A stretch of DNA of 64,000 nucleotides, taken from the NCBI RefSeq assembly GCF_900107235.1, contig NZ_FNPF01000003.1, forward strand, positions 248,001 through 312,000, in the 5' to 3' direction. Every line of letters starts with the position of its first letter. The stretch's first letter is position 1. Under the pieces are notes generated by a model. That model saw nothing but the letters and a program-made list of their open reading frames with translations. It did not search any database and had not been told where the DNA came from. Positions 24,052 to 43,535 of the stretch are shown here, piece after piece. The DNA is from Citreimonas salinaria (GTDB taxonomy: Bacteria; Pseudomonadota; Alphaproteobacteria; Rhodobacterales; Rhodobacteraceae). Both the position numbers and the translations under genes were made by a program.

Positions 24052-24543
24052 TCAGGTGGCCGCGGCCCGGTTGATGCCGCCGCGGGCCAGTTCGGTCATG
24101 GTCTCGTCGCCGTGATAGGTGTGCGACAGATGCTTGTCGATCTTCGCCGCTTCCTCGTCGAGGCCGAGCCTCTGGGCAAAGGCCTTGCAGCAGCCGTAGC
24201 CGGCGATCGCGTAATGCGCCATGCGCTGATATTGCGTGATGATCATCGCGTCCCGCACGTCGTCGTCCGAGTACGTCTCTTCCAGCACATGCGCGCGCGC
24301 CTCGGCGACGAGGCCCTGCATGCCCTGGCAATGCTCGCCTTCGTGCTGCGCGCCGTGCTCATGGACGATGGCGGCGAGCATCTCCATGCCGTCGGCGATG
24401 CCCTTGTGGCCGGCATGCAGCGCCTCTTTCAGGCGCTCGTCCTTGGCCGCTTCTTCCAGTTCGATGACGATGTCACGCGATTGCCTGCAGGCCGAGAGAA
24501 GGTCCTGCATCTGGTCGATATATAGGTCCTTGAGGTCGTCCAT
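24052..24543 (-). CDS. Ferritin-like DUF892 (YciE/YciF) stress protein, 163 aa
   Basis: Four-helix ferritin-like protein of the YciF group, often induced by osmotic or general stress. It begins DLKDLYIDQMQDLLSA (the DUF892 first helix) and has the family Glu/His pattern (IELEEAAKDERLKEAL, IVHEHGAQHEGEHCQGM, QYQRMAHYAIAGYGC). Soluble, normal length. ATG at 24543 with AAAGGAGA. A perfect EcfG-type promoter lies 39-64 bases upstream and a terminator follows, so it is a monocistronic stress gene. Confidence 0.9.
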   Translation of the reverse strand: MDDLKDLYIDQMQDLLSACRQSRDIVIELEEAAKDERLKEALHAGHKGIADGMEMLAAIVHEHGAQHEGEHCQGMQGLVAEARAHVLEETYSDDDVRDAMIITQYQRMAHYAIAGYGCCKAFAQRLGLDEEAAKIDKHLSHTYHGDETMTELARGGINRAAAT

Positions 24544-24581
24544 GGCGATCTCCTTTCCGGGATGGCTGTGCTTTCCCGGAC

Positions 24582-24607
24582 AACGAAACCGCGGCGCGCC
24601 CTGTTCC
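24582..24607 (-). promoter_or_regulatory. EcfG-type general-stress promoter of the DUF892 gene
   Basis: Minus strand GGAAC (24607-24603), 17-base spacer, CGTT (24585-24582), an exact match to the alphaproteobacterial EcfG/RpoE2 consensus. The predicted transcript start near 24575 leaves a ~32-base leader before ATG 24543. Confidence 0.75.
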
Positions 24608-24616
24608 GTCCCATCC

Positions 24617-26853
<2,237 letters not shown>

Positions 26854-26857
<4 letters not shown>

Positions 26858-28587
26858 GTGAACGTGACTTTCGTGGCAAATCCGTAGGCGTCGCCGGGCG
26901 CACCCTGCGTCAGGTCGGCGCCGGGAATGGGATCATAGGGGGTGCCGAGGGCGGCGACCGTCTCGATCTGACCGGCCTCGAAGCGCCACAGGGCGCGCAG
27001 CGCGCGCGGGCCGGTCTGGCCGACGCCGGCCTCGATCCGGCGGGTCTTCAGCAGCGGCACCACCTTCTCGGCGCGGTGACGCAGCAGGGAACGGGTCAGC
27101 GCACGCCAGTCCTCGGTATCCTCGGGCGGGTGATCGTAGGGGCGCGAGCCGGAGAAGGTATCGCGCGCCACCGGGTCGGGCACGCCTTCGCCGAAGGAGG
27201 CGAAGGCCTTGAACTCCTCGGCGCGTCCCTTGCGCACCGCCTCGGCCAGGTCGCCCTCGAACCCGACGAAGAAACGGAACGGCGTGCGCGCGCCGATCTC
27301 CTCGCCCATGAACAGCATCGGGATGTAGGGCGAGGTCAGCAGCAGCGCGTGCAGCACGCGCATCGGCTCGGGTCCGATCAGGGCGATCAGCCGGTCGCCC
27401 TGCGCGCGGTTGCCGATCTGGTCGTGGGTCTGGTTGGCGTGCAGGAAGGCGGTGGGCGGCAGGTGGCCCGAGGGCGCGCCGCGCGGCTCGCCCTTCGGGC
27501 GCTGCTGGCCCTCGTCCACCTGCCCGCGTTCCAGCGCGGTCACCAGGTCGGCCATCGGATCGACCGCGAAGGGCGCGTAATAGCTGTCGGCCTCGCCCGT
27601 GGTCAGCGCGTGCACCGCGTGGTGGTAATCGTCGTTCCAGGTGGCAACGGCCGTGCCCTCGTCCTGGAAGTCCGGCAGGTTGCGCTCGTCCTCGGTCACG
27701 AGGTGCACGGGGCGGCCCAGGTCCAGCGCGCGCAGACGTTCGGCCATCTCGGTGATCAGGTGCGGCTTGCCGGGGTCCGCGATGGCGTGCACCGCGTCCA
27801 GCCGCAGCCCGTCGAATCCGTAGTCGCGCACCCACATCTCGGCGTTCTGCAGCGCGAACTCGCGCACCGGGCGCAGGCCGTAGTCGATCGCCGGGCCCCA
27901 GGGCGTGTGCGTGCCTTCGCCGAAGAACCGGGGCGAAGTGACGTGCAGATAGGCGCCTTCGGGGCCGAAGTGATTGTAGACCACGTCCAGAAGCACCGCG
28001 ATGCCGGCGCGATGCGCCACGGCGATGAAATCCTTCAGGTCCTCGGGCGAGCCGTAGGCCGGATGCGGCGCGTAGGGCAGCACCCCGTCATAGCCCCAGC
28101 CTCGGTCGCCGGCGAACTGCGCGACGGGCATCAGCTCGACCACGGTGACGCCCGTCTCGGCCAGGTCGGGCAGACGGCGCGCGGCTGCGGCGAAGGTGCC
28201 TTCCGCGGTGAAGGTGCCCACGTGGATCTCCAGGATCGCCGCCTCGGCCCAGTCGCGGCCGGTCCAGCCTGCGGTGTCGGCGGCCGCGGGTTCGACCAAG
28301 ATCGAGGGATCGTGAACCCCGCCGCCCTGCAGGCGCGATGCCGGGTCGGGTACGTATGTCCCGTCCACGACGAATCCGTAGCGGTCGCCTGCCCGCGCAG
28401 CATGGGCGCCGTGCCAGACACCGTCTTCGCCCCGCCGCATGGCGAGATCGCTATCGCCTTCGTCGCCCGCGTCCAGCCGCAGCGCCACGGCAGAGGCGTC
28501 CGGCGCCCATAGCGCGAAGTCCCACGTGCCGCCCGAGGACGGGCGCGGTCCCCAGAAATGCGCCGGATGCGCGGCTGCTTCGGTCAT
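26854..28587 (-). CDS. treZ: Malto-oligosyltrehalose trehalohydrolase, 577 aa
   Basis: Releases trehalose from maltooligosyltrehalose made by TreY. The N-terminal CBM48-like domain (FWGPRPSSGGTWDFALWAPDA) precedes the GH13 barrel with EIHVGTFTAEGTF, DVVYNHFGPEG, GFDGLRLDAVHAI (nucleophile Asp) and a late FMGEEIGA. The ATG at 28587 has AAGGAG nine bases upstream; a TTG 15 bases earlier was rejected. The leader from the stress promoter is ~220 bases and could hold a small ORF. Confidence 0.93.
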
Positions 28588-28608
28588 TGCGGCTCCTTCC
28601 AAGCGGCG

Positions 28609-28740
28609 TCAGGCCTGGCGGAGGCGCCCAGGCACGGCCGGTGTTCGTTTCGGTCGCCACGCCGGCCCGGGGATGCGCGGCCAACGGGCGGGATTGCGGC
28701 GGCAGGTCCATCGCGGCGCGGCGGACAGGGCGAGTGCCAT
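28609..28740 (-). CDS. Possible 43-aa small ORF in the treZ leader
   Basis: ATG preceded by GGGGG, encoding an Arg/Pro-rich peptide (MALALSAAPRW...), ending 21 bases before treZ. It would fill the otherwise long leader between the EcfG promoter and treZ. The composition is what random GC-rich sequence gives, so this is speculative. Confidence 0.18.
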   Translation of the reverse strand: MALALSAAPRWTCRRNPARWPRIPGPAWRPKRTPAVPGRLRQA

Positions 28741-28811
28741 CCCCCGGACCACGCCGGAACCGATGAATATCCTCGGCCTGGCTTTCCCCGATCGCTACGT
28801 CTTCACGTGCT

Positions 28812-28837
28812 AACGCCCGGGTCGACGATGACGTTCC
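28812..28837 (-). promoter_or_regulatory. EcfG-type promoter of treZ-treY
   Basis: Minus strand GGAAC (28837-28833), 17-base spacer, CGTT (28815-28812), an exact match. It lies just beyond the 3' end of the AI-2E permease gene and ~225 bases before treZ. Confidence 0.65.
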
Positions 28838-28866
28838 TGAGGCGCGCTGCGGCACGGGCAATCGCC

Positions 28867-30015
28867 TCAGTCGTGGCCGCGATGGCCGGCCTGCTCGGTC
28901 TCGTCGCGCGTGCCTTCGTCGCCGCGAGCCGACAGAAAGTGGCCGACGCCGTGCAGGGCGGGGATGTGGTCGCAGAAGGTGCGCGCCGCGACCAGAAGCG
29001 GGGTGGCGACCAGCATGCCGACCACCGACCAAAGCCAGGCGAACAGCGTCACGGATAGGAACACCACCACCGGGTTCAGCCGAAGCGACCGCCCCACCAG
29101 CACCGGCGTCACGACCTGGCCCTCGAGGCTGGTGATGATGAAATACACCGCCGCCACCACCGCCGACTGCTCGAGCGTCTCGAGGGTGACGAAGGCGATC
29201 AACCCCGAGCCGAGCACGCCCAGAAGCGCTCCCAGATAGGGGATGAAGTTGAGCAGGAACGCGGCGATGCCCAGCAGGGCGGGATTGGGCATCTGCAGCC
29301 ACCACATCGCGGCACCGATCGCGACGCCCAGCCCCGCATTGATCGCGGTGATCGTCAGAAGGTAGCGCGACAGCTTGCGCTCGATATCGTAGGCCACCCG
29401 GATCGCGCGACGCTTGTCGTGGAAGGTGGGCATGACGTGCACCAGCTTCTCGTGGAACATGTCGCCCGACGCCAGCAGGAAGAACAGCAGGACCAGCGTG
29501 AACACCACCTGCGCCAGGATGCCGGGCAGCGACAGCGCAAGCGACAGCGCGCCGCCGCCTTCCTCCTCGACCTTGACGCGCTGCACGCCGGGCTCGTCCT
29601 CGCCCTCGGCGATCTCGTCGATCTGTTCGGCGGCGTCCTGCACCGTCTCGGTGGTGCCGCGGATCTGCTCGATCTTCTCGCGCAACTCGTAGCTGATGTC
29701 GGGCGCGCGGGCGATCCAGTCGCGCGCGGGCACGGCCAGGCTGGCGGCGCCGAGGGTCAGCACGCCGACGAGGGTGGCCATGATGATGCCGGCGGACAGG
29801 CCGGCGGACAGGCCCATCCGCTCCATCTGCCGCCGCAGCGGGCTGAAGACGAGCTGAAGCAGCAGCGCCAGCACCACGGGCATCAGGAAAGCACGCGCAT
29901 AGGCCAACCCGGCCACAAAGAGCATCAGGAAGATGCCGACCACCGCCCAGCACGGCGCGAGGGCCGCATGCGTTTCCTTGGGCTCGGCGGTGGCGGGCTC
30001 GTGGCTATCGCTCAT
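28867..30015 (-). CDS. AI-2E-family (PerM/TqsA-like) membrane protein, 382 aa
   Basis: Polytopic inner-membrane protein of the AI-2E transporter superfamily, whose members export small molecules or ions; true substrates are mostly unknown. About eight hydrophobic segments, with the central soluble region (DISYELREKIEQIRG...) and signature FLLNFIPYLGALLGVLGSG and EGQVVTPVLVGRSLRLNPVVVFLS. The ATG at 30015 was chosen; a TTG at 30051 is possible since neither has a good ribosome site. A near-consensus EcfG promoter lies ~100 bases upstream, placing it among the stress genes. Confidence 0.85.
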   Translation of the reverse strand: MSDSHEPATAEPKETHAALAPCWAVVGIFLMLFVAGLAYARAFLMPVVLALLLQLVFSPLRRQMERMGLSAGLSAGIIMATLVGVLTLGAASLAVPARDWIARAPDISYELREKIEQIRGTTETVQDAAEQIDEIAEGEDEPGVQRVKVEEEGGGALSLALSLPGILAQVVFTLVLLFFLLASGDMFHEKLVHVMPTFHDKRRAIRVAYDIERKLSRYLLTITAINAGLGVAIGAAMWWLQMPNPALLGIAAFLLNFIPYLGALLGVLGSGLIAFVTLETLEQSAVVAAVYFIITSLEGQVVTPVLVGRSLRLNPVVVFLSVTLFAWLWSVVGMLVATPLLVAARTFCDHIPALHGVGHFLSARGDEGTRDETEQAGHRGHD

Positions 30016-30113
30016 CGGCGCGCTCTGCCCCGCCGCCCGCGCTTCTGCCAAGCGTTCTTGTCGTGCTCAATGGATCGGTCCCCAACCGGCGCACGCGTTG
30101 CCGTGCCAAATCC

Positions 30114-30138
30114 AACCCGTCGGCGCGGCGGCGGTTCC
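30114..30138 (-). promoter_or_regulatory. Probable EcfG-type promoter of the AI-2E-family gene
   Basis: Minus strand GGAAC (30138-30134), 16-base spacer, GGTT (30117-30114). The -10 keeps the GTT core but has G in place of the first C. It is located just past the metallophosphoesterase stop. Confidence 0.45.
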
Positions 30139-30155
30139 CGCCGTCCCGAGCAATT

Positions 30156-30947
30156 CTAGGCCTGCACCCAGCCGTCGGGGCCCGCGGTATAGGCCATGCG
30201 CGACGCGCGGTCGAAAGCGGCGCCCTCCGAGAACACCATGCGCGTCACCTCGATCGAGCGGTGGCCGACATCGAGGATGGCGAAGTCGTTGTCCTGCCCG
30301 CGCAGACGCGACGACGCCGAGGTGCCGCAGTGAACCTGCAGGGTCTGGCCGTCGCTTTTCCGGGCGACGAACGGCTCGACCAGGAAGGTGTGCAGGTGAC
30401 CCGACAGGATCACGTGCGCGCCGCATTCCGCCCAGGCGTCGAGCGCCTCGGGCGCGCCGCGCATCAACGACTTGGCGACCTCGGGCCGGTGGTGGAAGGG
30501 ATGATGCGCCAGGATGATCGGAAGCCTGTCGCCGGCCTCGCGGATCATCGCGCCGACGCGGTCGATCTGGCGTTTATCCACGCGGCCGCGCTGATGGCTC
30601 CAGCGGTCGGTGGTGTCGAGGCCGATCACCCGCGCCCCGTCGCCCTCCCAGACCGGCTCGGTCTCGGGACCGATCCAGCGGCGAAACGCCGCCCGGGGTG
30701 CCAGCAGGCGCGCGGGCAGGTTGAACAGCGGGATATCGTGGTTGCCCGGCACGGCGATCCACGGCGCGGTCAACTCATCCACGAAGGCGCGCGCCGGGCG
30801 GTACTGCGACGCACGCGCGCGCTGGACGAAGTCGCCCGCGACGACGATGAGGTCCGGGCGCGCTCCGGTGATGGCCGCGTGCAGGCGGGACACCAGGCTT
30901 GGGCTTTCGTGACCGAAGTGGAGGTCTGCGATCAGGACGAGGCGCAT
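30156..30947 (-). CDS. Calcineurin-like metallophosphoesterase, 263 aa
   Basis: Bimetal phosphoesterase with all family motifs: DLHFGH (residues 8-13), GDF, PGNHD, HHPFHH and SGHLH. Probably a cytoplasmic phosphodi- or monoesterase; no signal peptide. It overlaps the lipid kinase stop (ATGA) and is the last of a four-gene coupled operon. A phospholipid or nucleotide substrate would fit the neighbours, but this is inference. Confidence 0.88.
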   Translation of the reverse strand: MRLVLIADLHFGHESPSLVSRLHAAITGARPDLIVVAGDFVQRARASQYRPARAFVDELTAPWIAVPGNHDIPLFNLPARLLAPRAAFRRWIGPETEPVWEGDGARVIGLDTTDRWSHQRGRVDKRQIDRVGAMIREAGDRLPIILAHHPFHHRPEVAKSLMRGAPEALDAWAECGAHVILSGHLHTFLVEPFVARKSDGQTLQVHCGTSASSRLRGQDNDFAILDVGHRSIEVTRMVFSEGAAFDRASRMAYTAGPDGWVQA

Positions 30948-32025
30948 CACTCGGTCCGCGCCGTTTCTTCCGCGCCCTCGGTCGCGCGCTGCGTCGGCAC
31001 GATCACGCCCAGCGCATCCGGTTTCAGGCGCACGGTGAACGGCCCCTTCATCCGTTCGCGTTCGCCATCGCGCGCCACCAGCTGGCGGGTCCGTTCGGTC
31101 CGGATCACGAACTCGCTTCCGGTCATCAGCCTGTAATCCTCGCCCGGGTTCACCCGGCGCGTCAGGATCTTGAAGGCGCGCCACAGCAACTGCAGCCTGC
31201 CGCCGTCGGGCGCGAGGTACAGCGCAAGCTGCCCGTCGCGCACAGCGTCCGCTCCCTCCAGCCCATACTCGTCGAGCTGGTAGGGCCGGATCGCGATGAA
31301 CGCCATCGGAGACCGGACGCGGTGTTCGATGCCGTCCACCGTCACGGTCATCTTCAGCGGCCGGTAGAGCGTCAGCATCGCGACGATGACCGACCAGTAA
31401 GCCGCCAGACGGCTGCGGCCCCAGCGAGCATAGATCTTCTCGCGCGCTTCGAGAACCGCCGCGTAGGCGCCCAGGCTGGCATTGTTGATGAAGGTCCGTC
31501 CGTTGATCTCGCCCAGGGCGATCCGCCTTTCGGTGCCCGAGCGCAGCACGTCCAGCGCCTCGTCGATATCCTCGGGGATTCCCATGCTGCGGGCGAGGAA
31601 GTTGAACGTGCCCATCGGCAGCACGCCCAGCCGGGTGCCGGTTTCCGACAGCACGCCGCTGAAGGCGCTGACCGTGCCGTCGCCGCCGGCGGCGACGATG
31701 GTGTCGTATCCTTGTGCCGCCGCCTCGCGGACGGGCTGTTCCAGCCCGGCCTTGGGATCGACGCGGCGCACCTCGAAGCCTTCCATGCCGCCGATCCGAC
31801 GCTCGAGGTCGTCCGTCTCGTCTCGCGCGCGCTTCCGGCCCGAGGCGCGGTTCAGCATCACCAGCGTGCGGCCGGGGCAGGCGCCCTTTCCGGCCTGGCC
31901 GGATGTCGTCCGGCCAGGCGGCCGATCAAGCGGTGCCGGGCCGGACGCCCGAGCGCCTTCGGGAGCGCTCTGGCCGTCTGGAGCGGTTTTTTTTTCGGCA
32001 TACGTCGGTGGTTGCGTCATCGCCG

Positions 32026-32029
<4 letters not shown>
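30947..32029 (-). CDS. Diacylglycerol/lipid kinase family protein (YegS-like), 360 aa
   Basis: ATP-dependent lipid kinase with the glycine-rich motif AAGGDGTVSAFSG (~residues 113-125) and LGVLPMGTFNFLARSMGIP. An unusual ~50-residue hydrophilic Pro/Gly-rich N-terminal extension precedes the domain. ATGA overlaps at both ends tie it to glgX upstream and the phosphoesterase downstream. Membrane-lipid remodelling during stress is the likely theme. Confidence 0.88.
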
Positions 32030-34079
<2,050 letters not shown>

Positions 34080-34080
<1 letters not shown>

Positions 34081-35066
34081 CAGGCAGGTTCCCCTTGGGC
34101 CGCGCGAACGGGTTGGCGCAGCCAGTGATGGGTGAAGGACAGCTTGTCCCGGACCGCGTCGGTCAGGACGAAGGGATAAAGATCGGGAATCTCGAGCGAG
34201 CGGTTCACGTGGTTTATCGCCAACGCGAGGCCGGTGGCGGTGGTCACCAGAGCATTCGCGTCCGGCTCGGCGTAGGCGTCAGGGGGCAGCTTGTGTCCGT
34301 CCAGCCGCAGACCGGCTGCCGACACGCTGTCGGTGAGGTCCGTGAGGTGCATCAGGTGTGCTGCCGTCTCGGCCCAATCCTCGTGTGGATGGGCCGCGGC
34401 ATAGGCGGTGATGAAGGTCGAACCGGGATCGCTCGGGCCGTCGGCATAGTGCTGCTGCAACGCTGCGTCATAGTCGCGGCGCTCGTCGCCGAACAAGGCG
34501 CGGAACGCGACGGTGAAGGCCGCGTTCCGCGCCAGCAGCGTGAACAGGAAATGCGCGATCTCGTGCCGGAAATGGCCGATCATCGTGCGGTAGCGCTCGG
34601 CCAGCGCCTCGCGCCGGGCGATGCGGGTGGGATGCGACGCCTCGGTCACGTTGATCGTGATGACGCCGTCGGCATGGCCCATCGTCACCGTCTCGATGCC
34701 CGCGCCGGTGTGCTCGGACAGCAGGCGAAAGTGCGGGCGCGGGCCCGCGGCGCCCGGCGCGAACCACCCCCAGCGCATCAGATTGGCCAAAACCCAGCGC
34801 TTTGCGGCCTCGGCCCGCGCCCACAGCACGCGGTTCTCGTCCACGGATGTGTCAGGGTGCACGTCAGTCATCGCGCAGGCATGGCACAGGCCGCCACCCG
34901 ACGGTCCGGCCCAGTTGCAGCCGATGGTTTCGCGATTGGCGCAGGGCACATCCAGAGCAACCAGCGCGTCACGCGCCGGATCGTACGCAATCTGCTGACC
35001 GCACCCGCATTGAATATTATCGAAGTACAGCACGCCTGCGCATGCCGCACATCTGTAGGTTTGCAT
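34080..35066 (-). CDS. Putative zinc-binding metallopeptidase with zinc ribbon (DUF2248 type), 328 aa
   Basis: Begins with a zinc-ribbon (CAAC...CGCG, residues 6-30) and another Cys pair (CHAC near 62). The predicted zincin motif is HFRHEIAHF (HExxH) followed by HEDWAETAAH, which could give the third ligand. The family is common in alphaproteobacteria; substrates are unknown. The ATG at 35066 has AGGGGC upstream. A longer start at 35102 would overlap the EcfG promoter (35095-35119), which leaves a ~22-base leader to 35066 and so supports the shorter start. It is the first gene of the four-gene stress operon. Confidence 0.85.
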
Positions 35067-35094
35067 CGACTTGCCCCTAGTGACCGTCATTGTA

Positions 35095-35119
35095 AACGCC
35101 ACACGCCCGGTACTGTTCC
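35095..35119 (-). promoter_or_regulatory. EcfG-type promoter of the metallopeptidase-glgX-lipid kinase operon
   Basis: Minus strand GGAAC (35119-35115), 16-base spacer, CGTT (35098-35095), an exact match. It is divergent from, and 55 bases away from, the plus-strand EcfG promoter. Confidence 0.75.
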
Positions 35120-35174
35120 ACGAGATGCCGTCGCGGCCGATCGCCGGGAATCGTCGCTTTTCAATCGTATCGCG

Positions 35175-35199
35175 GGAACCGTTGCACTAGCATAGCGTT
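35175..35199 (+). promoter_or_regulatory. EcfG-type promoter of the HWE histidine kinase gene
   Basis: GGAAC (35175-35179), 16-base spacer, CGTT (35196-35199), an exact match. Predicted start near 35206, leaving a ~116-base leader before ATG 35322. Confidence 0.72.
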
Positions 35200-35321
35200 G
35201 GGCAGCCCTGTGCGGGCGCGGCCGGAAGCCCCGGCTGAACGCCGGACGGTCCTGCCGGGCCGCAAGACGGAAGACCTGATGCACGGCCGGGGCCGGCGGA
35301 ACGGAGCAAGCGCGGACGAGC

Positions 35322-37118
35322 ATGACCGAGAACAGCAAGGAACTGGTCAGACTTGGCTCCGGCCAGACGATCGACAGCGTGCTGGCCTTCATAGGACTTC
35401 TGACGCCCGAAGGCCGCCTGCTCGAAGTCAACGATCCCGTGCTCGCGGTGTCCGGCATTCAGCGCTCGGACGTGGTGGGCCAGCTGTTCTGGGACTGCGA
35501 CTGGTGGACCTATGACCAGACTGTGCGCGAGCAGGTGCGCGATGCGGTGCAGCGTGCGCGCGCCGGGCAGACGGTGCGCTACGACACCGGGGTCCGCGTC
35601 GCCGACGGCACCCTGCTGGACATCGATTTCCAGATCGCGCCCTACCGCGACACCAACGGCGACCTTATCGCCCTGATCCCGTCCGCAGTCGACATCAGCG
35701 GCCGACGTGCGGTCGAACGGGCGCTGCGCGCCTCGTCCCAGGCGCTGCACGACGTGGTCCGCCACGCGCCCTTCGGCGTGATCCTGGTCGGCGGCGATTT
35801 CCGCATAGAATTGGTAAGCGCCGGCGCCGAGAAGGCGCTGGCGGGCGAAATGCCGATCATCGGTCGTGATCTCGGCGCGGTGATGCGGCAGGCCTGGGCC
35901 GAACCCTTCGCAAGCGAGGTGGTGGATATCTACCGCCGGGTGCTGGAAACAGGCGAGCCATACGCCACCCCCGGCATGGCCGAGCGCCGCACCGGGGGCA
36001 CCTTCGAAGCCTATGACTGGCGCGTCGAGCGGATCACCACCGCCGACGGGCGCCCGGGCCTGGTGTGCTACTTCTACGACCTGTCCGAGCGCGACCGGAT
36101 CGAGGCCGCGCTGATCCGGTCCGAGACGATGTTCCGCGCCACCTTCGAGAACGCCGCCATAGGCATGGCACACGTGGCGCGCGATGGCTCGTGGCTTCGG
36201 GTGAACTCGAAGCTGTGCGAGATCGCCGGCTATTCCAAGGCCGAGCTCGAGCGCGGGCGCTTTCAGGACATCACCGCGCCGGAAGACCTGGACGGCGACC
36301 TGGAGTGCATGCAGGAGATCCTGGACGGCCGACGCGATGAATACGCGATGGAGAAGCGCTATGTCCGCGGCGACGGAACGCAGGTCTGGATCAACCTGAC
36401 CGTGGGCTGCGTGCGCGACAACGCCGGCGAGGTCGAGTACCTGATCGCCTGCGTCGAGGACATCTCGGCGCAGAAGAAGGCAGACGCCCATCGCCAGATC
36501 CTGGTGGAGGAGCTGAACCACCGGGTGAAGAACATCCTCAGCACGGTGCTGTCGGTGTCGTCGCAGACGATCCGGGCGTCGCGCGACCTGGAGGATTTCC
36601 GATCGCGCTTCGGCGGGCGGCTGCAGGCCATTTCGCGCACGCATGACAGCATCTTCGACAGCGATGGCGGCATCGCGCAGCTGCACGACCTGATCGAGGG
36701 CCAGTTCGAAACCTACGTCTCAGAGGTCGGCCGACGGATCAGGGCCTCGGGGCCGCCGGTGGCGCTGAACGCGGCACAGGCCAACGCGGTGGGACTGTTG
36801 GTCCACGAATTGCTGACCAACGCCATGAAATACGGCGCGCTGGCCAGCGAGGACGGGCACATCGACATCACCTGGCGCACCCGTTCCGGCGAACGCAGCG
36901 CGACCGAGGTCGACCTGGTCTGGGTCGAATCCGGGGCGCGGGACGTCACTGAGCCCACGCATACCGGGTTCGGAACCAAACTCATCGAGACGACGGTCGT
37001 CAGGACGCTCGGCGGCACGCTCGAGCGAGACTACCGCCGCGACGGGCTTCGGTGCAGCATGACGCTGCAGATCAGCCGGCATGACGAAACGGACGAAAGC
37101 GCGCACCGCCTAGGGTGA
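35322..37118 (+). CDS. PAS-domain HWE-family sensor histidine kinase, 598 aa
   Basis: Soluble (no membrane segment) sensor with three PAS domains at about residues 16-126, 140-260 and 264-386, then an HWE kinase domain. Phosphoacceptor His400 lies in VEELNHRVKNIL. The N-box is VHELLTNAMKYGAL (495-507) and the diagnostic WVE is at 534-536. In alphaproteobacteria HWE/HisKA2 kinases commonly feed the PhyR-NepR-EcfG general stress pathway. This gene itself has an EcfG promoter, suggesting feedback; no phyR, nepR or ecfG is in the window. A cofactor such as flavin in a PAS domain cannot be judged: no NCRFLQ LOV motif is seen. Confidence 0.9.
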   Translation: MTENSKELVRLGSGQTIDSVLAFIGLLTPEGRLLEVNDPVLAVSGIQRSDVVGQLFWDCDWWTYDQTVREQVRDAVQRARAGQTVRYDTGVRVADGTLLDIDFQIAPYRDTNGDLIALIPSAVDISGRRAVERALRASSQALHDVVRHAPFGVILVGGDFRIELVSAGAEKALAGEMPIIGRDLGAVMRQAWAEPFASEVVDIYRRVLETGEPYATPGMAERRTGGTFEAYDWRVERITTADGRPGLVCYFYDLSERDRIEAALIRSETMFRATFENAAIGMAHVARDGSWLRVNSKLCEIAGYSKAELERGRFQDITAPEDLDGDLECMQEILDGRRDEYAMEKRYVRGDGTQVWINLTVGCVRDNAGEVEYLIACVEDISAQKKADAHRQILVEELNHRVKNILSTVLSVSSQTIRASRDLEDFRSRFGGRLQAISRTHDSIFDSDGGIAQLHDLIEGQFETYVSEVGRRIRASGPPVALNAAQANAVGLLVHELLTNAMKYGALASEDGHIDITWRTRSGERSATEVDLVWVESGARDVTEPTHTGFGTKLIETTVVRTLGGTLERDYRRDGLRCSMTLQISRHDETDESAHRLG

Positions 37119-37171
37119 GGCCTTCTCCGCGGGTGCGTCGAGCGTGGCGGGCAGCCTGCGGCGCTCCGGGT

Positions 37172-37197
37172 GCAACCGAACCTGTGCCCTGCGCGTT
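37172..37197 (+). promoter_or_regulatory. Possible EcfG-type promoter of ku-ligD (one mismatch)
   Basis: GCAAC (37172-37176), 17-base spacer, CGTT (37194-37197). The -35 differs from GGAAC at one position. It lies ~80 bases before the ku ATG and after the kinase stop. Confidence 0.35.
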
Positions 37198-37278
37198 TGC
37201 ACGCCAGGCAGGGCGTCGCGACGGAAGACGTCGGGCGCCGCAGAAGGCGCCACGATCCGCGCCCCCACAGGAGACGCC

Positions 37279-38274
37279 ATGGCATCGCGTGCAGTCTGGA
37301 AAGGTCAGATCCGTCTTTCGCTGGTCTCGATCCCGGTCGAGATCCACAGCGCCACCAGCAGCGGCGCGCGCGTCAGCTTTCGCCAGATCCACGGCCCTTC
37401 GGGCCAGCGGGTGCGCTACGAAAAGACCGTGCCGGGCGTCGGCGCGGTCGAAAGTTCGGACATCAAGAAGGGGTACGAGGTCGGCGACGACGAGTACCTG
37501 CTGCTGGAGCCCGACGAGATCGACGCCATCAAGCTGGAGACCAAGAAGACGCTGGAGCTCGTACAGTTCGTCGGCGCCTGCGAGATCCCGCCGCTTTATT
37601 TCGACAAGCCCTATTACGTGGTGCCCACCGACGACCTGGCCGAGGACGCCTATCGCGTGGTCCGCGACGCGCTGCGCCAGACCGAGATGACGGGCCTGGG
37701 CCAGCTGACCATGCGCGGCAAGGAATACCTGTGCGCCATCCGCCCCTGCGGCGACGGGCTGCTGCTGGAGACGCTGCACTACGCGGACGAGATCAAGGAC
37801 GCCGATCCGCTGTTCACGGGGATCGAGGACGACCCGGCCGACGAAGAATTGCTGTCGGTCGCGACCGAGTTGATCAACCGCAAGACCAAGCCCTTCGAGG
37901 CCGCGGCCTTCGAGGACCGGTACGACATCGCACTGCGCGAATTGCTGGACGCCAAGCGCAAGAACCGCAAGACGCCACGTGCCCGCGCCGGGGCCGAGAC
38001 CTCCGGCGGCACCCGCGGCGGCGACAACGTGGTCGACCTGATGGCGGCGCTGAAGGACAGCCTGAAGGCGGATTCCGGCGCCAAGGGCGGCTCGCGCGCA
38101 TCGACGGCGAAGAAGCCGGCGGCATCGAAATCCACCGGGTCGAAGCCTGCCGCGTCCAAGTCCACCGCCTCCAAGACGACGGCCACCAAGTCGCCCGCGA
38201 AGGCGACGGCTGGCGCCGAGAAGAAATCCACGAGCGCGAAGTCCACCCCGGCCAAGGGCCGGAAGACCGCCTGA
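37279..38274 (+). CDS. ku: Non-homologous end joining protein Ku, 331 aa
   Basis: Binds double-strand break ends and recruits LigD. It begins RAVWKGQIRLSLVSIPVEIHSA and contains YEKTVPGVGAVESSDIKKGYEVG and VQFVGACEIPPLYFDKPYYVVP, typical bacterial Ku core. The core ends near residue 265 and is followed by a Lys/Ser/Thr/Ala-rich low-complexity tail (repeats like KSTxSK) that would add DNA affinity. ATG at 37279 with AGGAGA. ligD follows after one base. A second ku copy cannot be excluded elsewhere. Confidence 0.95.
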   Translation: MASRAVWKGQIRLSLVSIPVEIHSATSSGARVSFRQIHGPSGQRVRYEKTVPGVGAVESSDIKKGYEVGDDEYLLLEPDEIDAIKLETKKTLELVQFVGACEIPPLYFDKPYYVVPTDDLAEDAYRVVRDALRQTEMTGLGQLTMRGKEYLCAIRPCGDGLLLETLHYADEIKDADPLFTGIEDDPADEELLSVATELINRKTKPFEAAAFEDRYDIALRELLDAKRKNRKTPRARAGAETSGGTRGGDNVVDLMAALKDSLKADSGAKGGSRASTAKKPAASKSTGSKPAASKSTASKTTATKSPAKATAGAEKKSTSAKSTPAKGRKTA

Positions 38275-38275
38275 C

Positions 38276-40798
38276 ATGACGCGGCTCGAGGCCTATCACG
38301 GCAAGCGCGACTTCGAAGTCACGCCCGAGCCGCGCGATGGCGGTCGGGCGGACGGTCTCGCCCCAGTCTACTCGATGCAGAACCACGACGCGACGCGGCT
38401 GCACTGGGACCTGCGGCTGGAATACGACGGAGTGCTGCTCAGTTGGGCCATCACGCGCGGCCCCTCACTCGACCCGGCCGACAAGCGGCTGGCGGTCCAG
38501 ACCGAGGATCACCCGATGAGCTATCTCGACTTCGAGGGCACGATCCCCAAGGGCAATTACGGCGCGGGCACGGTGATGCTGTGGGATGTCGGTCACTGGC
38601 AGCCGCTGTCGGACGTCGCCAAGGGGCTGAAGAAAGGCCACCTGTCGTTCGTGCTGCACGGGCTGCGGATGACCGGACGGTGGGACATGATCCGCCTCAA
38701 GCCCGAAGGCAAGCGCGTCAACTGGCTGCTGGTCAAGCACGAGGACGCCGCCGCCCACGGCCCCGATCCGGTCAAGCGCTACACCACCAGCGTCGCCACC
38801 CGCCGCACGATGGATGCCATTGCCGAAGACGCGCCCACGGCGCCGCCGCCCCCGCGCAAGACCGCCCTGCCCCGCTGGCGCCAGCCTCAGCTTGCCACGC
38901 TGACGGACCGTCTTGGCGATCCCGAGCAGCGCTGGCACGAACTGAAGTTCGACGGCTATCGCGCGCTGGTCGCCGTCGGCAAGGGTGGTGCCCGCATCTA
39001 CACGCGCAACGGCCACGACTGGACCGACAGGTTCCTGCCGCTGGTTCCCGCGTTCGAGGAGTTGCCCTGCGACGCAGCACTGATCGACGGCGAGATCACC
39101 GTGGGCGCGGGCCTTTATGGCTTCGGCCGCCTGCAGAAGGCGATCAAGCTGGGTGGGCCGTTCCACTTTCACGCCTTCGACCTGCTGAAGCGCGACGGCG
39201 AAGACCTGACGGGCCTGCCGCTGACCAACCGCCGCGCGGCTCTTGAGGAGTTGTTCACCGACACGCCCCCGCTGGGGCTGCTTCAATTGTCGCCGGTCCT
39301 GCGCGGCGACGCCTCGGACGCTTTCGACCGGGTCTGCCACACCGGCGGCGAGGGGCTGATCTCGAAGCGGATGGACGCTCCCTATCGCGGCGGACGCTCG
39401 ACCGCCTGGGAAAAGATCAAGTGCATCAAGCGCGACGAGTTCGTGGTGATCGGCTGGCAGGACTCGGACAAGAAGGGCCGGCCCTTCGCCTCGCTCGCGC
39501 TGGGGATCGAGGAAGCTGGCGAGATGGTCTATGCCGGCAAGATCGGCACCGGCTGGGATGCCGACACGATGGACGAGATCGCCGCCCGGCTGAAGCCGCT
39601 GGCGCGCAAGACCGCGCCCGCCCCGGTGCCCGCCGCCGAAGCGCGCGGCATGAACTGGGTCACGCCGCGGCTGGTCGTCGAAGTGCGCTACGCCGAAGTG
39701 ACGGAGGACGGCCGCCTGCGCCATCCCAGCTTCGAAGGCCTGCGCGAGGACAAGCCGGCCGACCAGGTTCGCCGCGATCCGCCCACGGCTGCGCTGGAGA
39801 CGGCGGCGGAAACCAAGCCGAAGGCGCGCGGCTCCGCCCCCGCCAAGCCCCAGCGCAGCACGAAGGCAGCGGCAGTTGCGGACGCGGGAGACAAGCGCGC
39901 GACGACGGCCGCGAACGGGCGGGTGACGATCGCCGGCATCTCGCTCAGCTCGCCCGACCGGCGGGTCTTTCCGCAGGCCCGCCACACCAAGCGCGACGTG
40001 GCCGAGTACTACGCCCGCGCAGCCGACCGCATGCTGCGCTTCGCCGGCGACCGACCGCTGTCGCTGGTCCGCCTGCCTGAGGGGCTGGAGGGCGAACGGT
40101 TCTTCCAGAAGCACGCCGGCAAGGGCTTTCCCGACGCGATCCGCACCGTCGAGATCGCCGAGAAGTCGGGCGCAGCCGAATACATGACGGTGCGCGACGC
40201 CGCGGGCCTCGTGGGCGCGGTGCAGATGGGCACGATCGAGTTCCACATCTGGGGCGCGCGGAACGATCGGGTCGAACGCCCCGACCGCATGGTCTTCGAC
40301 CTGGACCCGGATGAAGGGCTGGGCTTCGACGCCGTGAAAGCCGGCGCGTTCGAGATCCGCGACCGCCTGGATGCGCTGGGGCTGCCGAGCTGGCCGTTGC
40401 TGACCGGCGGTAAGGGGGTGCATGTAGTCGTGCCGTTGCGGCGCACCGCCGGGTGGGAAACCGTCTCGCTGTTTTCGCGCATGCTGGCCGAGCTTTGCGC
40501 GCGCGACGCGCCCGAACGCTACACCGCCACGATGTCCAAGGCGAAGCGCAAGGGCCGCATCTTCATCGACTGGCTTCGCAACCAGCGCGGGGCCACGGCC
40601 ATCGCGCCGTGGTCGCTGCGGGCACGCGCCGGTGCGCCGGTCGCCGTGCCGGTGACCTGGACCGAGCTGGAAGCCACCGACCGCGCGAACCTCTTCACCC
40701 TGGACGACGCGCTGAACCGCGATCCCGAGGCCACCCCTCCTCCGGGTCCCGTGTCCCTGTCGGCAGCGGTTCTGAAACGCCTCGAATCCCGGTTGTGA
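38276..40798 (+). CDS. ligD: Multifunctional DNA ligase D, 840 aa
   Basis: End-joining enzyme with domains in the order phosphoesterase, ligase, polymerase (as in Pseudomonas). Residues 1-~170 are the 3'-phosphoesterase (HDATRLHWDLRLE). Residues ~205-500 are the ATP-dependent ligase with KxDG lysine Lys224 (LKFDGYRA). An Ala/Lys linker (505-545) follows, then the primase-polymerase with catalytic FDLDPD (Asp675/Asp677). All three activities look intact. The ATG at 38276 lies within TGACATG, one base after the ku stop. Confidence 0.95.
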   Translation: MTRLEAYHGKRDFEVTPEPRDGGRADGLAPVYSMQNHDATRLHWDLRLEYDGVLLSWAITRGPSLDPADKRLAVQTEDHPMSYLDFEGTIPKGNYGAGTVMLWDVGHWQPLSDVAKGLKKGHLSFVLHGLRMTGRWDMIRLKPEGKRVNWLLVKHEDAAAHGPDPVKRYTTSVATRRTMDAIAEDAPTAPPPPRKTALPRWRQPQLATLTDRLGDPEQRWHELKFDGYRALVAVGKGGARIYTRNGHDWTDRFLPLVPAFEELPCDAALIDGEITVGAGLYGFGRLQKAIKLGGPFHFHAFDLLKRDGEDLTGLPLTNRRAALEELFTDTPPLGLLQLSPVLRGDASDAFDRVCHTGGEGLISKRMDAPYRGGRSTAWEKIKCIKRDEFVVIGWQDSDKKGRPFASLALGIEEAGEMVYAGKIGTGWDADTMDEIAARLKPLARKTAPAPVPAAEARGMNWVTPRLVVEVRYAEVTEDGRLRHPSFEGLREDKPADQVRRDPPTAALETAAETKPKARGSAPAKPQRSTKAAAVADAGDKRATTAANGRVTIAGISLSSPDRRVFPQARHTKRDVAEYYARAADRMLRFAGDRPLSLVRLPEGLEGERFFQKHAGKGFPDAIRTVEIAEKSGAAEYMTVRDAAGLVGAVQMGTIEFHIWGARNDRVERPDRMVFDLDPDEGLGFDAVKAGAFEIRDRLDALGLPSWPLLTGGKGVHVVVPLRRTAGWETVSLFSRMLAELCARDAPERYTATMSKAKRKGRIFIDWLRNQRGATAIAPWSLRARAGAPVAVPVTWTELEATDRANLFTLDDALNRDPEATPPPGPVSLSAAVLKRLESRL

Positions 40799-40888
40799 CT
40801 CACTTTCCGGTGACGGCCGCCCTTAGGCCCGGTTAACGGTTTTCCGCTACTCCCGATCCCACAGCATTTCAAATGTAGGGCAATTCGC

Positions 40889-41197
40889 ATGGGATTTGAG
40901 AAGCGGGCCAACAGGTGGCCAAGCAGCTGGCAGATGATCATCTCGTTCGGCGGCCGCGCAGAATCGGTCGTGGAGGTGCGCAACGTCAGCGCATCGGGAA
41001 TGAAGTGCGCGGGCCGAGCCGAGGCCAGGCCTGGCGAGCGTGTGCAGTTCGGCATCATGGGCCAGAAGGTGACGGGCTACGTAGTGCGCCAGGGCGCGGA
41101 CGACTTCGCCATCTCCTTCCTGCGCCCGCTGACGGACGCGCAACTGCACTGCCTGCGCCAATTCCGCAGGCTTCCCGTGTCCGAGAAGCAGTTCTGA
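40889..41197 (+). CDS. Small PilZ-like domain protein, 102 aa
   Basis: Short single-domain protein resembling PilZ, the c-di-GMP receptor fold. It has a basic N-terminus (FEKRANRW) in place of a clean RxxxR, and VRNVSASGMKCAG matching the (D/N)xSxxG strand. Binding ability is uncertain because the RxxxR is imperfect. ATG at 40889 with AGGG upstream. The CHASE2-EAL protein 2.4 kb away is a c-di-GMP enzyme candidate, but no operon links them. Confidence 0.7.
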   Translation: MGFEKRANRWPSSWQMIISFGGRAESVVEVRNVSASGMKCAGRAEARPGERVQFGIMGQKVTGYVVRQGADDFAISFLRPLTDAQLHCLRQFRRLPVSEKQF

Positions 41198-41247
41198 CGA
41201 TCGGCCCGGGCCACTATGCGCGGTGCGCCACGGCAGAGGCTGCGGCG

Positions 41248-41272
41248 CCCCTGCCATGTGACCCGGCAGGGG
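41248..41272 (+). terminator. Possible terminator hairpin after the PilZ gene
   Basis: Perfect 8-bp stem CCCCTGCC / GGCAGGGG with a 9-base loop in the 257-bp gap before the cardiolipin synthase gene. No T-run, so it is tentative. The rest of the gap shows nothing recognised. Confidence 0.4.
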
Positions 41273-41454
41273 TGCTCCAGCACCGTCCTGATCACCTGCG
41301 CGCCGGATCGGCGTCGTCGCACGATCCTTGCATGCCGCGCGGGACTGTGTGACGTCGCAGCTGACGTGTCGGATTGCCGCCTTCCGGTTTGACACTCCGC
41401 GGCGGCGCGACGACCCTCTGCGACAACGACGACCGCAAGGCGCAGAGAGGACGC

Positions 41455-42855
41455 GTGACAGGCTATTTGACTGCATTGACCGGCGTCGCGCTTATCGCCG
41501 CGGCCGCCTACTGCGTCTGGAGCGCGGTGTCTTCGGCGCGCACACCGCAAGGCGCGCTTGCGTGGACGATCTTTCTCGTTGCGGCGCCCTGGGTGGCTGT
41601 GCCCGCCTACGTGGTCTTCGGCCAGCACAAGCTGCGCGGGCAACGCCTGTCGCACCGCCACACTCTGGCGCTCACGGAGAACGCGAATCTGCCGGTGCCC
41701 GGAACCGCGCCCGCAACGTCGGACCGGATGCGGATCTTCTCGAGGCTCGCGGGCCTGCCGGTCCTGCGCGGCAACAGCGCCGAGCTTCTGATCGACGGCC
41801 ACGCCACGTTCGATGCGATCTTCCGGGCCATCGACGGCGCGCACGACTACGTGCTGGTGCAGTTCTACACCATCGCCGACGACGGGCTGGGCCAGGACTT
41901 CGCCGACAGGCTCATCGCTGCCGCCGCCCGAGGCGTGACGGTGCGGCTACTGTGCGACCGGGTCGGCAGCCACAATCTGCCCCGCGCCTACTGGCGCCGA
42001 CTCGTCGACGCCGGCGTTCACTTCCCAGACCCGCGCACGACCCTGCACCGGGCCTCGCGCAGCCGCGTCAACTTCCGCAACCATCGCAAGACGGTGATCG
42101 TCGACGGGCAATGGGCAACCTTGGGCGGGCACAACGTGACCGACCTGTATCTGGGTCTCGATCCGGGGATGGGGCATTGGCGCGATACCCACATCGCTCT
42201 AAAGGGACCCGTCGTGTCGCAGATCCAGCTCGGCTTTGTGCAGGACTGGCACTGGCAGACGGGCGAGATGCTGGAACGGCTGGACTGGAGCCCGGATGTG
42301 ATCGCCGAAGGCGTGGATGCGGTCACCGTGCTGATGGGGCCGACGGACGACTTCGACACCGGGGCGCTGTTCTTCTTTTCGGCGATCATGCGGGCGCGGC
42401 ACAGGGTCTGGATCGCGACACCCTACGTGGTGCCGGATTTCGACACGCTGTCGGCCCTGAAATGCGCGGCGCTTGACGGCTGCGACGTGCGCCTGCTGGT
42501 GCCCGCGCGCATCGACCACTACCTGCCCTGGCTGGCCGCCTTCGCGTTCTACGACGAACTGCGCCAGGCGGGCGTTCGGATCTACCGCTATTGCGACGGG
42601 TTCCAGCACCAGAAAGTGGTTCTGATCGACGACGACCTGGCCTCGATCGGGACCGCGAATCTGGACAACCGCTCCTTCCGCCTCAACTTCGAGACCATGG
42701 TCATGATCGAGGATACCGAGTTTGCCGCCCGCACCGACGCGATGCTGCGGGAGGACATGAAAGCCACCGACCTTCTGGAGACGCCGCTGAGCCATCAACC
42801 GCTGGTGATGCGGATCGGTGCGCGCCTCGCACGGCTGCTGGCGCCGGTGCTGTGA
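41455..42855 (+). CDS. cls: Phospholipase D-family cardiolipin synthase, 466 aa
   Basis: Inner-membrane enzyme condensing phosphatidylglycerols to cardiolipin. Two N-terminal membrane helices (LTALTGVALIAAAAY and AWTIFLVAAPWVAVPAYVVF), then two intact HKD motifs: NHRKTVIVDGQWATLGGHN and HQKVVLIDDDLASIGTANLD. The GTG at 41455 has AGAGAGGA; an upstream in-frame ATG gives a non-membrane leader and was rejected. The stop overlaps the ATG of the EEP gene by one base, so the two are one unit. Confidence 0.9.
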   Translation: MTGYLTALTGVALIAAAAYCVWSAVSSARTPQGALAWTIFLVAAPWVAVPAYVVFGQHKLRGQRLSHRHTLALTENANLPVPGTAPATSDRMRIFSRLAGLPVLRGNSAELLIDGHATFDAIFRAIDGAHDYVLVQFYTIADDGLGQDFADRLIAAAARGVTVRLLCDRVGSHNLPRAYWRRLVDAGVHFPDPRTTLHRASRSRVNFRNHRKTVIVDGQWATLGGHNVTDLYLGLDPGMGHWRDTHIALKGPVVSQIQLGFVQDWHWQTGEMLERLDWSPDVIAEGVDAVTVLMGPTDDFDTGALFFFSAIMRARHRVWIATPYVVPDFDTLSALKCAALDGCDVRLLVPARIDHYLPWLAAFAFYDELRQAGVRIYRYCDGFQHQKVVLIDDDLASIGTANLDNRSFRLNFETMVMIEDTEFAARTDAMLREDMKATDLLETPLSHQPLVMRIGARLARLLAPVL

Positions 42856-43535
42856 TGACGCTGCGGATCGTGAGTTACAACATCCGCAAGGCGGTGGGGC
42901 TGGACTGGCGCCGCTCACCCGCGCGGGTGCTGCGCGTGATCGACGGACTCGATCCCGACGTCGCCGTTCTGCAGGAAGCCGACAAGCGGCTGGGCGCGCG
43001 GCCAACGGCGCTGCCGCGCGAGATGATCGAGCGCGAGACCGCGCTGCGGCCGGTCGACCTGTCGCTGGGCGCGGGCGGGATCGGCTGGCACGGCAACGCC
43101 GTGCTCGTGCGCAAGGACCTGCCCGTCGAGGCGCGGATGCGCCTTGTCCTGCCGGGGCTCGAGCCGCGCGGCGCGGTGCTGGTGCGGGTGGGGGGCATTT
43201 GGATCGTCGGGACGCACCTGGGGCTTCTGCGGCGGTGGCGGCAGCTTCAGATGGCGACGATCCTGCGCCATCTCGGGCATGTCGCAAGCCATGCACTGGT
43301 GGCGGGCGACTTCAACGAGTGGTCGATGGCGCGCGGCTTCGAGCCGTGGCAGGACGCGCTGCACGTCGTTGCTCCGGGCCCCTCCTTTCACGCATCCCGC
43401 CCTACCGCGTTTCTGGACCGGTTTGCCCACGGATCGGCGGTGCAGATCCTCGATCACGGGGTCGCCCGCGGCGGGCTGGCGGGCATGGCATCCGATCACC
43501 TGCCGATCTGGGCCGAGGTCCAGCAGGCGCGTTGA
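42855..43535 (+). CDS. Endonuclease/exonuclease/phosphatase (EEP) family protein, 226 aa
   Basis: Mg2+-dependent phosphodiesterase/phosphatase fold: SYNIRKAVG, DVAVLQEAD (metal Glu), VGTHLGL, LVAGDFNEW and SDHLPIWAEV (catalytic His). Frequently coupled to PLD-type cardiolipin synthases, suggesting a membrane-phospholipid role. No signal peptide. It begins within the cls stop codon (TGATG). Confidence 0.88.
   Translation: MTLRIVSYNIRKAVGLDWRRSPARVLRVIDGLDPDVAVLQEADKRLGARPTALPREMIERETALRPVDLSLGAGGIGWHGNAVLVRKDLPVEARMRLVLPGLEPRGAVLVRVGGIWIVGTHLGLLRRWRQLQMATILRHLGHVASHALVAGDFNEWSMARGFEPWQDALHVVAPGPSFHASRPTAFLDRFAHGSAVQILDHGVARGGLAGMASDHLPIWAEVQQAR

What the first reader, a model, noticed from the sequence alone, without database searches (positions are those of the whole stretch)
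24052..43535. A clustered general-stress regulon: several EcfG-type promoters across one 19-kb stress island
Reading intergenic regions on both strands gives four exact GGAAC-N16/17-CGTT matches (DUF892, treZY, metallopeptidase-glgX operon, HWE kinase) and two near matches (AI-2E permease, ku-ligD). They precede nearly every transcription unit from 24 to 40 kb, each in the right orientation. EcfG regulons are usually scattered; here osmoprotection, glycogen turnover, lipid remodelling, ferritin-like protein, sensor kinase and end joining sit together.
Basis: partly seen in the sequence, partly recalled or inferred. Interest (0 to 1): 0.78.

Follow-up and report, generated by a model that had tools for sequence, protein, structure and literature searches.

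The report
Clustered stress-switch promoters, satellite island
This stretch of a bacterial chromosome groups trehalose, glycogen and DNA-repair genes that appear to be switched on together by the cell's general-stress sigma factor, and it is a smaller satellite of a much denser cluster of the same kind of promoters around the sigma factor's own gene elsewhere in the genome.

Summary
The four exact GGAAC-N16/17-CGTT sites are where stated, intergenic and correctly oriented; two more exact matches are one palindrome inside a gene. The two near sites (AI-2E, ku-ligD) match published EcfG-promoter variants. All six transcription units from DUF892 to ligD carry a site. Exact sites precede 4 of 10 island units against 1 of 124 in randomly drawn stretches. 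The genome has EcfG, NepR and PhyR, though not in the stretch annotated here. Upstream of the metallopeptidase the site is conserved in relatives (18 of 80 exact, 57 of 80 within one mismatch), while the neighbourhood is not, so the promoter travels with the gene. Trehalose genes, glgX, Ku and ferritin-like proteins are EcfG-dependent in Sphingomonas. The window cluster is only modestly denser than chance placement (about 0.013, interval chosen afterwards). The stronger finding lies outside: 47 kb around phyR-nepR-ecfG with 17 exact sites, 16 correctly placed. Pooled over 19 relatives, sites fall off with distance from ecfG (28-, 19-, 8-, 2-fold). I read the window as a satellite of a spatially clustered EcfG regulon. 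Raw site counts per genome separate EcfG-positive from negative genomes poorly. Expression was not tested.

The parts
24052..24543 (-). DUF892 (ferritin-like) gene
24582..24607 (-). exact EcfG-type site GGAAC-N17-CGTT, 38 nt before DUF892
   Evidence: exact site also before the homologue in G047 and G006
24617..26857 (-). treY, malto-oligosyltrehalose synthase
   Evidence: TIGR02401 650.9 bits over a cut-off of 498.65
26854..28587 (-). treZ, malto-oligosyltrehalose trehalohydrolase; overlaps treY by 4 nt
   Evidence: TIGR02402 590.3 bits over a cut-off of 538.8
28812..28837 (-). exact EcfG-type site GGAAC-N17-CGTT, 224 nt before treZ
28867..30015 (-). AI-2E family permease
   Evidence: Pfam AI-2E_transport 9.5e-50 for the ORF 28867-30051
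30114..30138 (-). variant site GGAAC-N16-GGTT, 98 nt before AI-2E
   Evidence: C/GGTT is within the consensus printed in PMC4814048 (passage)
30156..30947 (-). calcineurin-like phosphoesterase, last gene of the metallopeptidase operon
   Evidence: Pfam Metallophos 1.3e-16 for the ORF 30156-31184
30947..32029 (-). diacylglycerol kinase family (YegS-like)
   Evidence: Pfam DAGK_cat 5e-25
32026..34080 (-). glgX, glycogen debranching enzyme
   Evidence: TIGR02100 955.5 bits over a cut-off of 640.9
34080..35066 (-). zinc-binding metallopeptidase (Peptidase_Mx)
   Evidence: Pfam PF15887 2.2e-73 for the ORF 34080-35102; ATG at 35066 read from the sequence
35095..35119 (-). exact EcfG-type site GGAAC-N16-CGTT, 28 nt before the metallopeptidase
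   Evidence: conserved at nearly the same place in relatives
35175..35199 (+). exact EcfG-type site GGAAC-N16-CGTT, 122 nt before the HWE kinase
   Evidence: not examined in relatives
35322..37118 (+). PAS-containing HWE sensor histidine kinase
   Evidence: Pfam HWE_HK 7.9e-23 and several PAS families
37172..37197 (+). variant site GCAAC-N17-CGTT, 81 nt before ku
   Evidence: GCAAC is one of the two most frequent -35 boxes in Sphingopyxis (PMC7083833, passages)
37279..38274 (+). ku, non-homologous end joining
   Evidence: TIGR02772 283.6 bits over a cut-off of 150
38276..40798 (+). ligD, DNA ligase D
   Evidence: TIGR02776 599.1 bits over a cut-off of 373.2

Best explanation
The window holds a satellite cluster of the alphaproteobacterial general-stress (EcfG) regulon. 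On stress, PhyR is phosphorylated and takes NepR away from EcfG, all encoded on contig C39 (established mechanism of the family). EcfG-RNA polymerase then starts six transcription units at the sites listed, which make trehalose from glycogen (glgX, treY, treZ), a DUF892 protein, a permease, a metallopeptidase/lipid-kinase operon and a Ku-LigD repair pair. The HWE kinase, itself under such a site, most likely feeds back on PhyR (inferred). Shown: sites, orientation, non-chance placement, conservation upstream of some orthologues, and presence of EcfG, NepR and PhyR in the genome. Inferred: that EcfG uses the sites, and the kinase's target.
For: Exact oriented sites before 4 of 10 island units, 0 of 24 other window units and 1 of 124 units in random stretches (p 7.9e-5); spacings 12/13 and 20/21 give no exact oriented site in any of these sets. 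PhyR, NepR and EcfG found in the genome. The metallopeptidase site is exact in 18 of 80 relatives, 17 of them 54-67 nt before the start (53 nt here), and within one mismatch in 57 of 80; control spacings give 1 of 80 exact and 5 of 80 within one mismatch. Sites before DUF892, ku and treZ or glgX homologues in several relatives. ku and DUF892 occur only in EcfG-positive genomes (8 of 8 and 6 of 6, own excluded; EcfG in 29 of the 60 others). The Sphingomonas EcfG regulon includes Ku, a treY/treZ/glgX cluster, ferritin-like proteins and an orphan kinase (PMC6599016, passages).
Against: No expression data. One-mismatch sites are near chance elsewhere: 7 of 124 random units, against 6 and 7 for control spacings, and control spacing 12/13 gives 2 of 10 in the island, so the two variant sites are weak alone. 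23 of 80 metallopeptidase relatives have no site even at one mismatch. The treZ site is far (224 nt). treZ co-occurs with EcfG in 5 of 6, p 0.083. Raw site density hardly differs between EcfG-positive and negative family genomes (medians 13.8 and 12.8 per Mb, p 0.086), so counts alone prove nothing. No locus looked at keeps the whole island.
Confidence: 0.85

Rival explanations
1. The sites are chance matches in GC-rich DNA.
For: A palindromic pair in the window is inside a gene, and 34 of 115 genome matches are coding. EcfG-negative family genomes hold as many matches per Mb (medians 12.8 against 13.8), and two EcfG-negative genomes of 5.6 Mb hold 120 and 137.
Against: In this genome 81 of 115 are intergenic and 67 oriented before a gene; own density is 27 per Mb and 2.7 times the reversed pattern; 1 of 124 random units; conserved position before the metallopeptidase in relatives.
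Confidence: 0.05
2. The sites are read mainly by a paralogous sigma factor (EcfG2 on contig C16 or the EcfG-like protein on C48) and not by the C39 EcfG.
For: The genome has three EcfG-like proteins and two PhyR-NepR-EcfG loci; paralogues share targets in other species (PMC7083833, PMC4814048, passages).
Against: No exact site in the 20 kb around EcfG2, while the C39 locus is embedded in them. A shared motif cannot tell the paralogues apart.
Confidence: 0.25
3. The window segment is a recently acquired mobile stress island, and the clustering reflects import as a block.
For: Gene set patchy in the family (treZ 7, ku 9, DUF892 7 of 61 genomes).
Against: No integrase or transposase family among the 20 window ORFs scanned; the only tRNA call lies inside a coding gene; window G+C is 68.2% and the 95-kb C39 stretch 67.8%. 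The rest of the window was not scanned for mobile genes.
Confidence: 0.1

Closest known systems
EcfG (ECF15) general-stress regulon of Sphingomonas melonis Fr1 (PMC6599016)
   Same: Ku, a treY/treZ/glgX cluster, two ferritin-like proteins, MscS and an orphan hybrid histidine kinase depend on EcfG; motif GGAAC-N17-20-GTT (passages)
   Different: In the passages seen these genes carry distant locus numbers (#1102, #1273-6, #1813, #2221 and so on); here six units share 16 kb, and a second region packs 17 sites into 47 kb
EcfG1/EcfG2 regulon of Sphingopyxis granuli TFA (PMC7083833)
   Same: GGAAC-N16-CGTT; GCAAC as frequent -35 variant; paralogous EcfG (passages)
   Different: 104 genes in 79 operons defined with RNA-seq; no clustering described in the passages seen
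Two-locus GSR of Rubellimicrobium thermophilum (PMC12148442)
   Same: Two PhyR-NepR-EcfG loci in one genome, consensus GGAAC-N16-17-C/GGTT (passages)
   Different: Work on signalling by a LOV kinase; no target clustering described in the passages seen

Membership tests
EcfG-dependent promoter | GGAAC-N16/17-CGTT (or the published GCAAC and GGTT variants) upstream of the gene, right strand | tested here: met
   four exact, two variants, all intergenic and oriented
EcfG-dependent promoter | A PhyR-NepR-EcfG system in the same genome | tested here: met
EcfG-dependent promoter | Site conserved before orthologues: metallopeptidase | tested here: met
   18 of 80 exact, 57 of 80 within one mismatch
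EcfG-dependent promoter | Site conserved before orthologues: DUF892, ku, treZ | tested here: inconclusive
   present in some of few relatives; DUF892 2 exact and 3 one letter off of 6, ku 2 and 2 of 8, treZ 1 and 1 of 6
EcfG-dependent promoter | Site conserved before orthologues: HWE kinase, AI-2E | not tested
   no search of relatives made
EcfG-dependent promoter | Transcription lost in an ecfG mutant | not testable with these tools
   needs RNA-seq
HWE/HisKA2 kinase acting on PhyR | HWE_HK domain | tested here: met
HWE/HisKA2 kinase acting on PhyR | Phosphotransfer to PhyR | not testable with these tools
   needs a biochemical assay
Mobile genomic island | Integrase or transposase and attachment tRNA at the edges | tested here: inconclusive
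   none among the 20 window ORFs scanned; one tRNA call inside a coding gene; the rest of the window not scanned

The most novel reading that the evidence does not exclude
EcfG regulons condense physically around the gene of their own sigma factor: promoters of this one kind accrete near ecfG, with density falling with distance, and this genome is an extreme case (47 kb, 17 exact sites, 25 of 31 units with a site at one mismatch) that may also have satellites such as the window and the small C56 contig. If selection and not shared ancestry keeps targets close, regulon position itself is part of the stress response.
Probability: 0.4. Interest if true: 0.68.

Novelty: new variant of a known kind. 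Interest (0 to 1): 0.52.

Why it matters
The regulon, motif and target genes are known. What is unusual is their packing. A measured fall-off of target promoters with distance from the sigma-factor gene, seen when genera are pooled, makes testable whether a global stress regulon has a spatial layout, and offers a way to extend predicted stress regulons, including families without known function, in genomes with no expression data.

Tried and rejected
Chance matching is disfavoured by spacing controls, random stretches and conservation. Whole-island synteny in named relatives was looked for and not found. Raw counts per genome were tried as evidence and failed: EcfG-positive and negative genomes differ little, and in many genomes the reversed pattern is commoner than the real one. 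My first control stretches were placed after I had seen the site list and fall between listed sites, so their 0 of 99 for exact sites is circular, and so is the Fisher value that used them; I replaced them with 12 stretches drawn by a random generator, with the window and the C39 island excluded. I first took the metallopeptidase start as 35068, out of frame, and corrected it to 35066. A first classification dropped the minus-strand loci (102 rows) and was redone with all 115. Around the second regulator locus on C16 there is no exact site in 20 kb, only one-mismatch ones. Outside the family no single hub reached p below 0.01 beyond 2 kb (0 of 10), and control spacings there gave 9 sites in 40 kb hubs against 26 for the motif.

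Sampling: family hubs were examined in 19 of the 29 other EcfG-positive family genomes, class hubs in 10 of 18, taken mostly down the score list with long contigs preferred. Of the relatives with ku or treZ I fetched wider regions for some only. Genome sizes of relatives are rounded, so expected counts are approximate. Gene calls in scripts come from my own codon-based caller. Papers: seven searches; among the titles and abstract starts listed (lists capped, open-licence PubMed Central only) I saw none on spatial clustering of EcfG promoters. Papers opened were seen as passages only.
Full report
What was checked. The window lies at C31:248001-312000 of a 4.26-Mb, 62-contig genome. Named genomes with the nearest metallopeptidase relatives include Salipiger, Paracoccus and Henriciella, so I take it for an alphaproteobacterium of the Rhodobacteraceae kind; the collection holds no other genome of its genus. 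The four exact sites claimed are present. Two further exact matches form a palindrome inside the metallopeptidase gene and I do not count them as promoters. The operons are compact: treZ and treY overlap, and the metallopeptidase, glgX, lipid kinase and phosphoesterase ORFs overlap.

Is it more than chance? The genome has 115 exact matches against 42 for the reversed pattern. I classified all 115: 81 are intergenic and 67 lie, correctly oriented, within 300 nt of a gene start, while 87% of nine control stretches is coding. Units with an exact oriented site: 4 of 10 in the island (24.0-43.6 kb), 0 of 24 in the rest of the window, 16 of 31 in the C39 region, 0 of 24 in its flanks, and 1 of 124 in 12 stretches drawn at random. 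Fisher p is 7.9e-5 for the island and 1.9e-12 for C39 against the random stretches. With one mismatch: 6 of 10, 1 of 24, 25 of 31, 3 of 24 and 7 of 124; control spacings 12/13 and 20/21 give 2 and 0 of 10, 1 and 0 of 24, 2 and 4 of 31, 0 and 2 of 24, and 6 and 7 of 124. So one-mismatch sites are at chance level in ordinary DNA and above it only in the two clusters. A rate estimate from the 47 oriented sites outside both clusters gives 2% of units and p about 3e-5 for 4 of 10. Against uniform placement of the 51 oriented sites outside the C39 island, four within 10.6 kb appear in 252 of 20000 simulations, with the interval taken from the data.

The regulator. NepR is found twice over its cut-off, at C39:33470 and C16:285281. 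C39:32496-34167 carries PhyR, NepR and EcfG. Around it, from C39:24113 to 70629, lie 17 exact sites, 16 of them intergenic and oriented; 67 sites placed at random never gave more than 8 in 46.5 kb in 20000 simulations. Genes there include mechanosensitive channels, PAP2, PRC-barrel, CsbD, MgtC, ferritin, TrkA/TrkH, a trypsin/PDZ (DegP-like) protease, AI-2E permeases, BrkB, and a dehydrogenase/cytochrome/oxidase run. The window is therefore a satellite and not the centre.

Conservation. In 80 named loci around the metallopeptidase, an exact site lies within 150 nt upstream in 18 and a site with at most one mismatch in 57; control spacings give 1 and 5; elsewhere in these loci exact sites run at 0.00077 per 150 nt. 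Of the other window genes only an AI-2E permease (one locus) and an EAL protein (one locus) appear in these loci, which reach at most 10 kb each side. The promoter is kept while the neighbourhood is not. Sites also precede DUF892 homologues (exact in G047 and G006; one letter off in G057, G023, G049 and the second own copy; none in G026), ku homologues (exact in G047 and, at a contig end, G021; one letter off in G018 and G050; of 8 other genomes) and treZ (exact in G047, one letter off in G006; of 6). In G018 and G049 glgX-treZ-treY lie within 20 kb of ligD-ku, the G049 ku there being a divergent one, with sites between in G018. EcfG is found in 30 of 61 family genomes; ku in 9, DUF892 in 7 and treZ in 7 of 61; own genome aside, ku 8 of 8 (p 0.0017), DUF892 6 of 6 (p 0.0095) and treZ 5 of 6 (p 0.083) are EcfG-positive. 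Raw site density does not separate the two groups: medians 13.8 and 12.8 per Mb, p 0.086; relative to the reversed pattern 0.68 and 0.52, p 0.042; own genome 27 per Mb and 2.7.

The wider pattern. In 40 kb around ecfG of 19 relatives, 96 exact sites were found against 10.9 expected from each genome's mean: 28-fold within 2 kb, 19-fold at 2-5 kb, 8-fold at 5-10 kb, 2-fold at 10-20 kb; four control spacings together gave 16. Singly, 8 of 19 genomes are significant at 0.01 beyond 2 kb, and two (G023, G032) have no site. In 10 genomes of other families the folds are 18, 9, 5 and 0.7 (26 sites against 5.5; controls 9), none significant singly beyond 2 kb. This is a gradient and not a fixed operon: families that recur (PLDc_N, BrkB, CsbD, AI-2E, PRC) change order and strand. 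That many ECF sigma factors have targets near their own gene is recalled; for the global regulator EcfG I saw no description of it among the listings.

Known biology. In Sphingomonas melonis, Ku, a treY/treZ/glgX cluster, two ferritin-like proteins, MscS channels and an orphan kinase depend on EcfG (PMC6599016, passages). Sphingopyxis uses GGAAC and GCAAC as its two commonest -35 boxes (PMC7083833, passages), and papers on Methylobacterium and Rubellimicrobium print C/GGTT for the -10 (PMC4814048; PMC12148442; passages). [quoted passage not shown]

Mechanism and limits. Shown: sites, orientation, non-random placement, conservation before some orthologues, presence of the regulators. Inferred: EcfG use of the sites, feedback by the HWE kinase, any benefit of proximity. 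The clustering could be neutral, since genes gained near an existing stress cluster may simply be kept there. On re-checking I replaced a biased control by a random one; the conclusion and the odds of the main reading did not change, and I raised the chance-match rival from 0.04 to 0.05 because raw counts do not separate EcfG-positive genomes.

Noticed in passing
L036/L037/L038 (C39:24113-70629): A 47-kb region around phyR-nepR-ecfG with 17 exact EcfG-type sites, denser than anything in the window.
   Followed up: yes
L213:9339-12749 (C16, about 284340-287750): A second phyR-nepR-ecfG-kinase locus (HisKA_2 kinase, weak dCache match), with no exact EcfG site in 20 kb, only single-mismatch ones.
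   Followed up: partly
L214:2730-5663 (contig C48): A second Peptidase_Mx gene near a third, divergent EcfG-like sigma factor, on a 17-kb contig that also has a desaturase and a PLD-family protein.
   Followed up: partly
L085 and L271 (contig C56): A 9.1-kb contig with four exact matches (two of them one palindrome), a second, divergent Ku (33% identity) and a LigD-like stretch: perhaps another small stress cluster.
   Followed up: no
phyR/nepR gaps in L221, L224, L226, L236, L238, L240, L250, L252: In 8 of 19 relatives two exact sites on opposite strands overlap with an offset of 6-8 nt beside phyR, as if one element served both directions; the own C39 gap has the same with one site a mismatch off. 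Other sites are 2-nt-offset palindromes.
   Followed up: no
window 23354-23446: ARAGORN calls a tRNA-Glu inside the radical SAM gene; probably false.
   Followed up: no
window 40889-41197: A 102-aa ORF between ligD and the PLD gene without a Pfam match at 1e-5.
   Followed up: no
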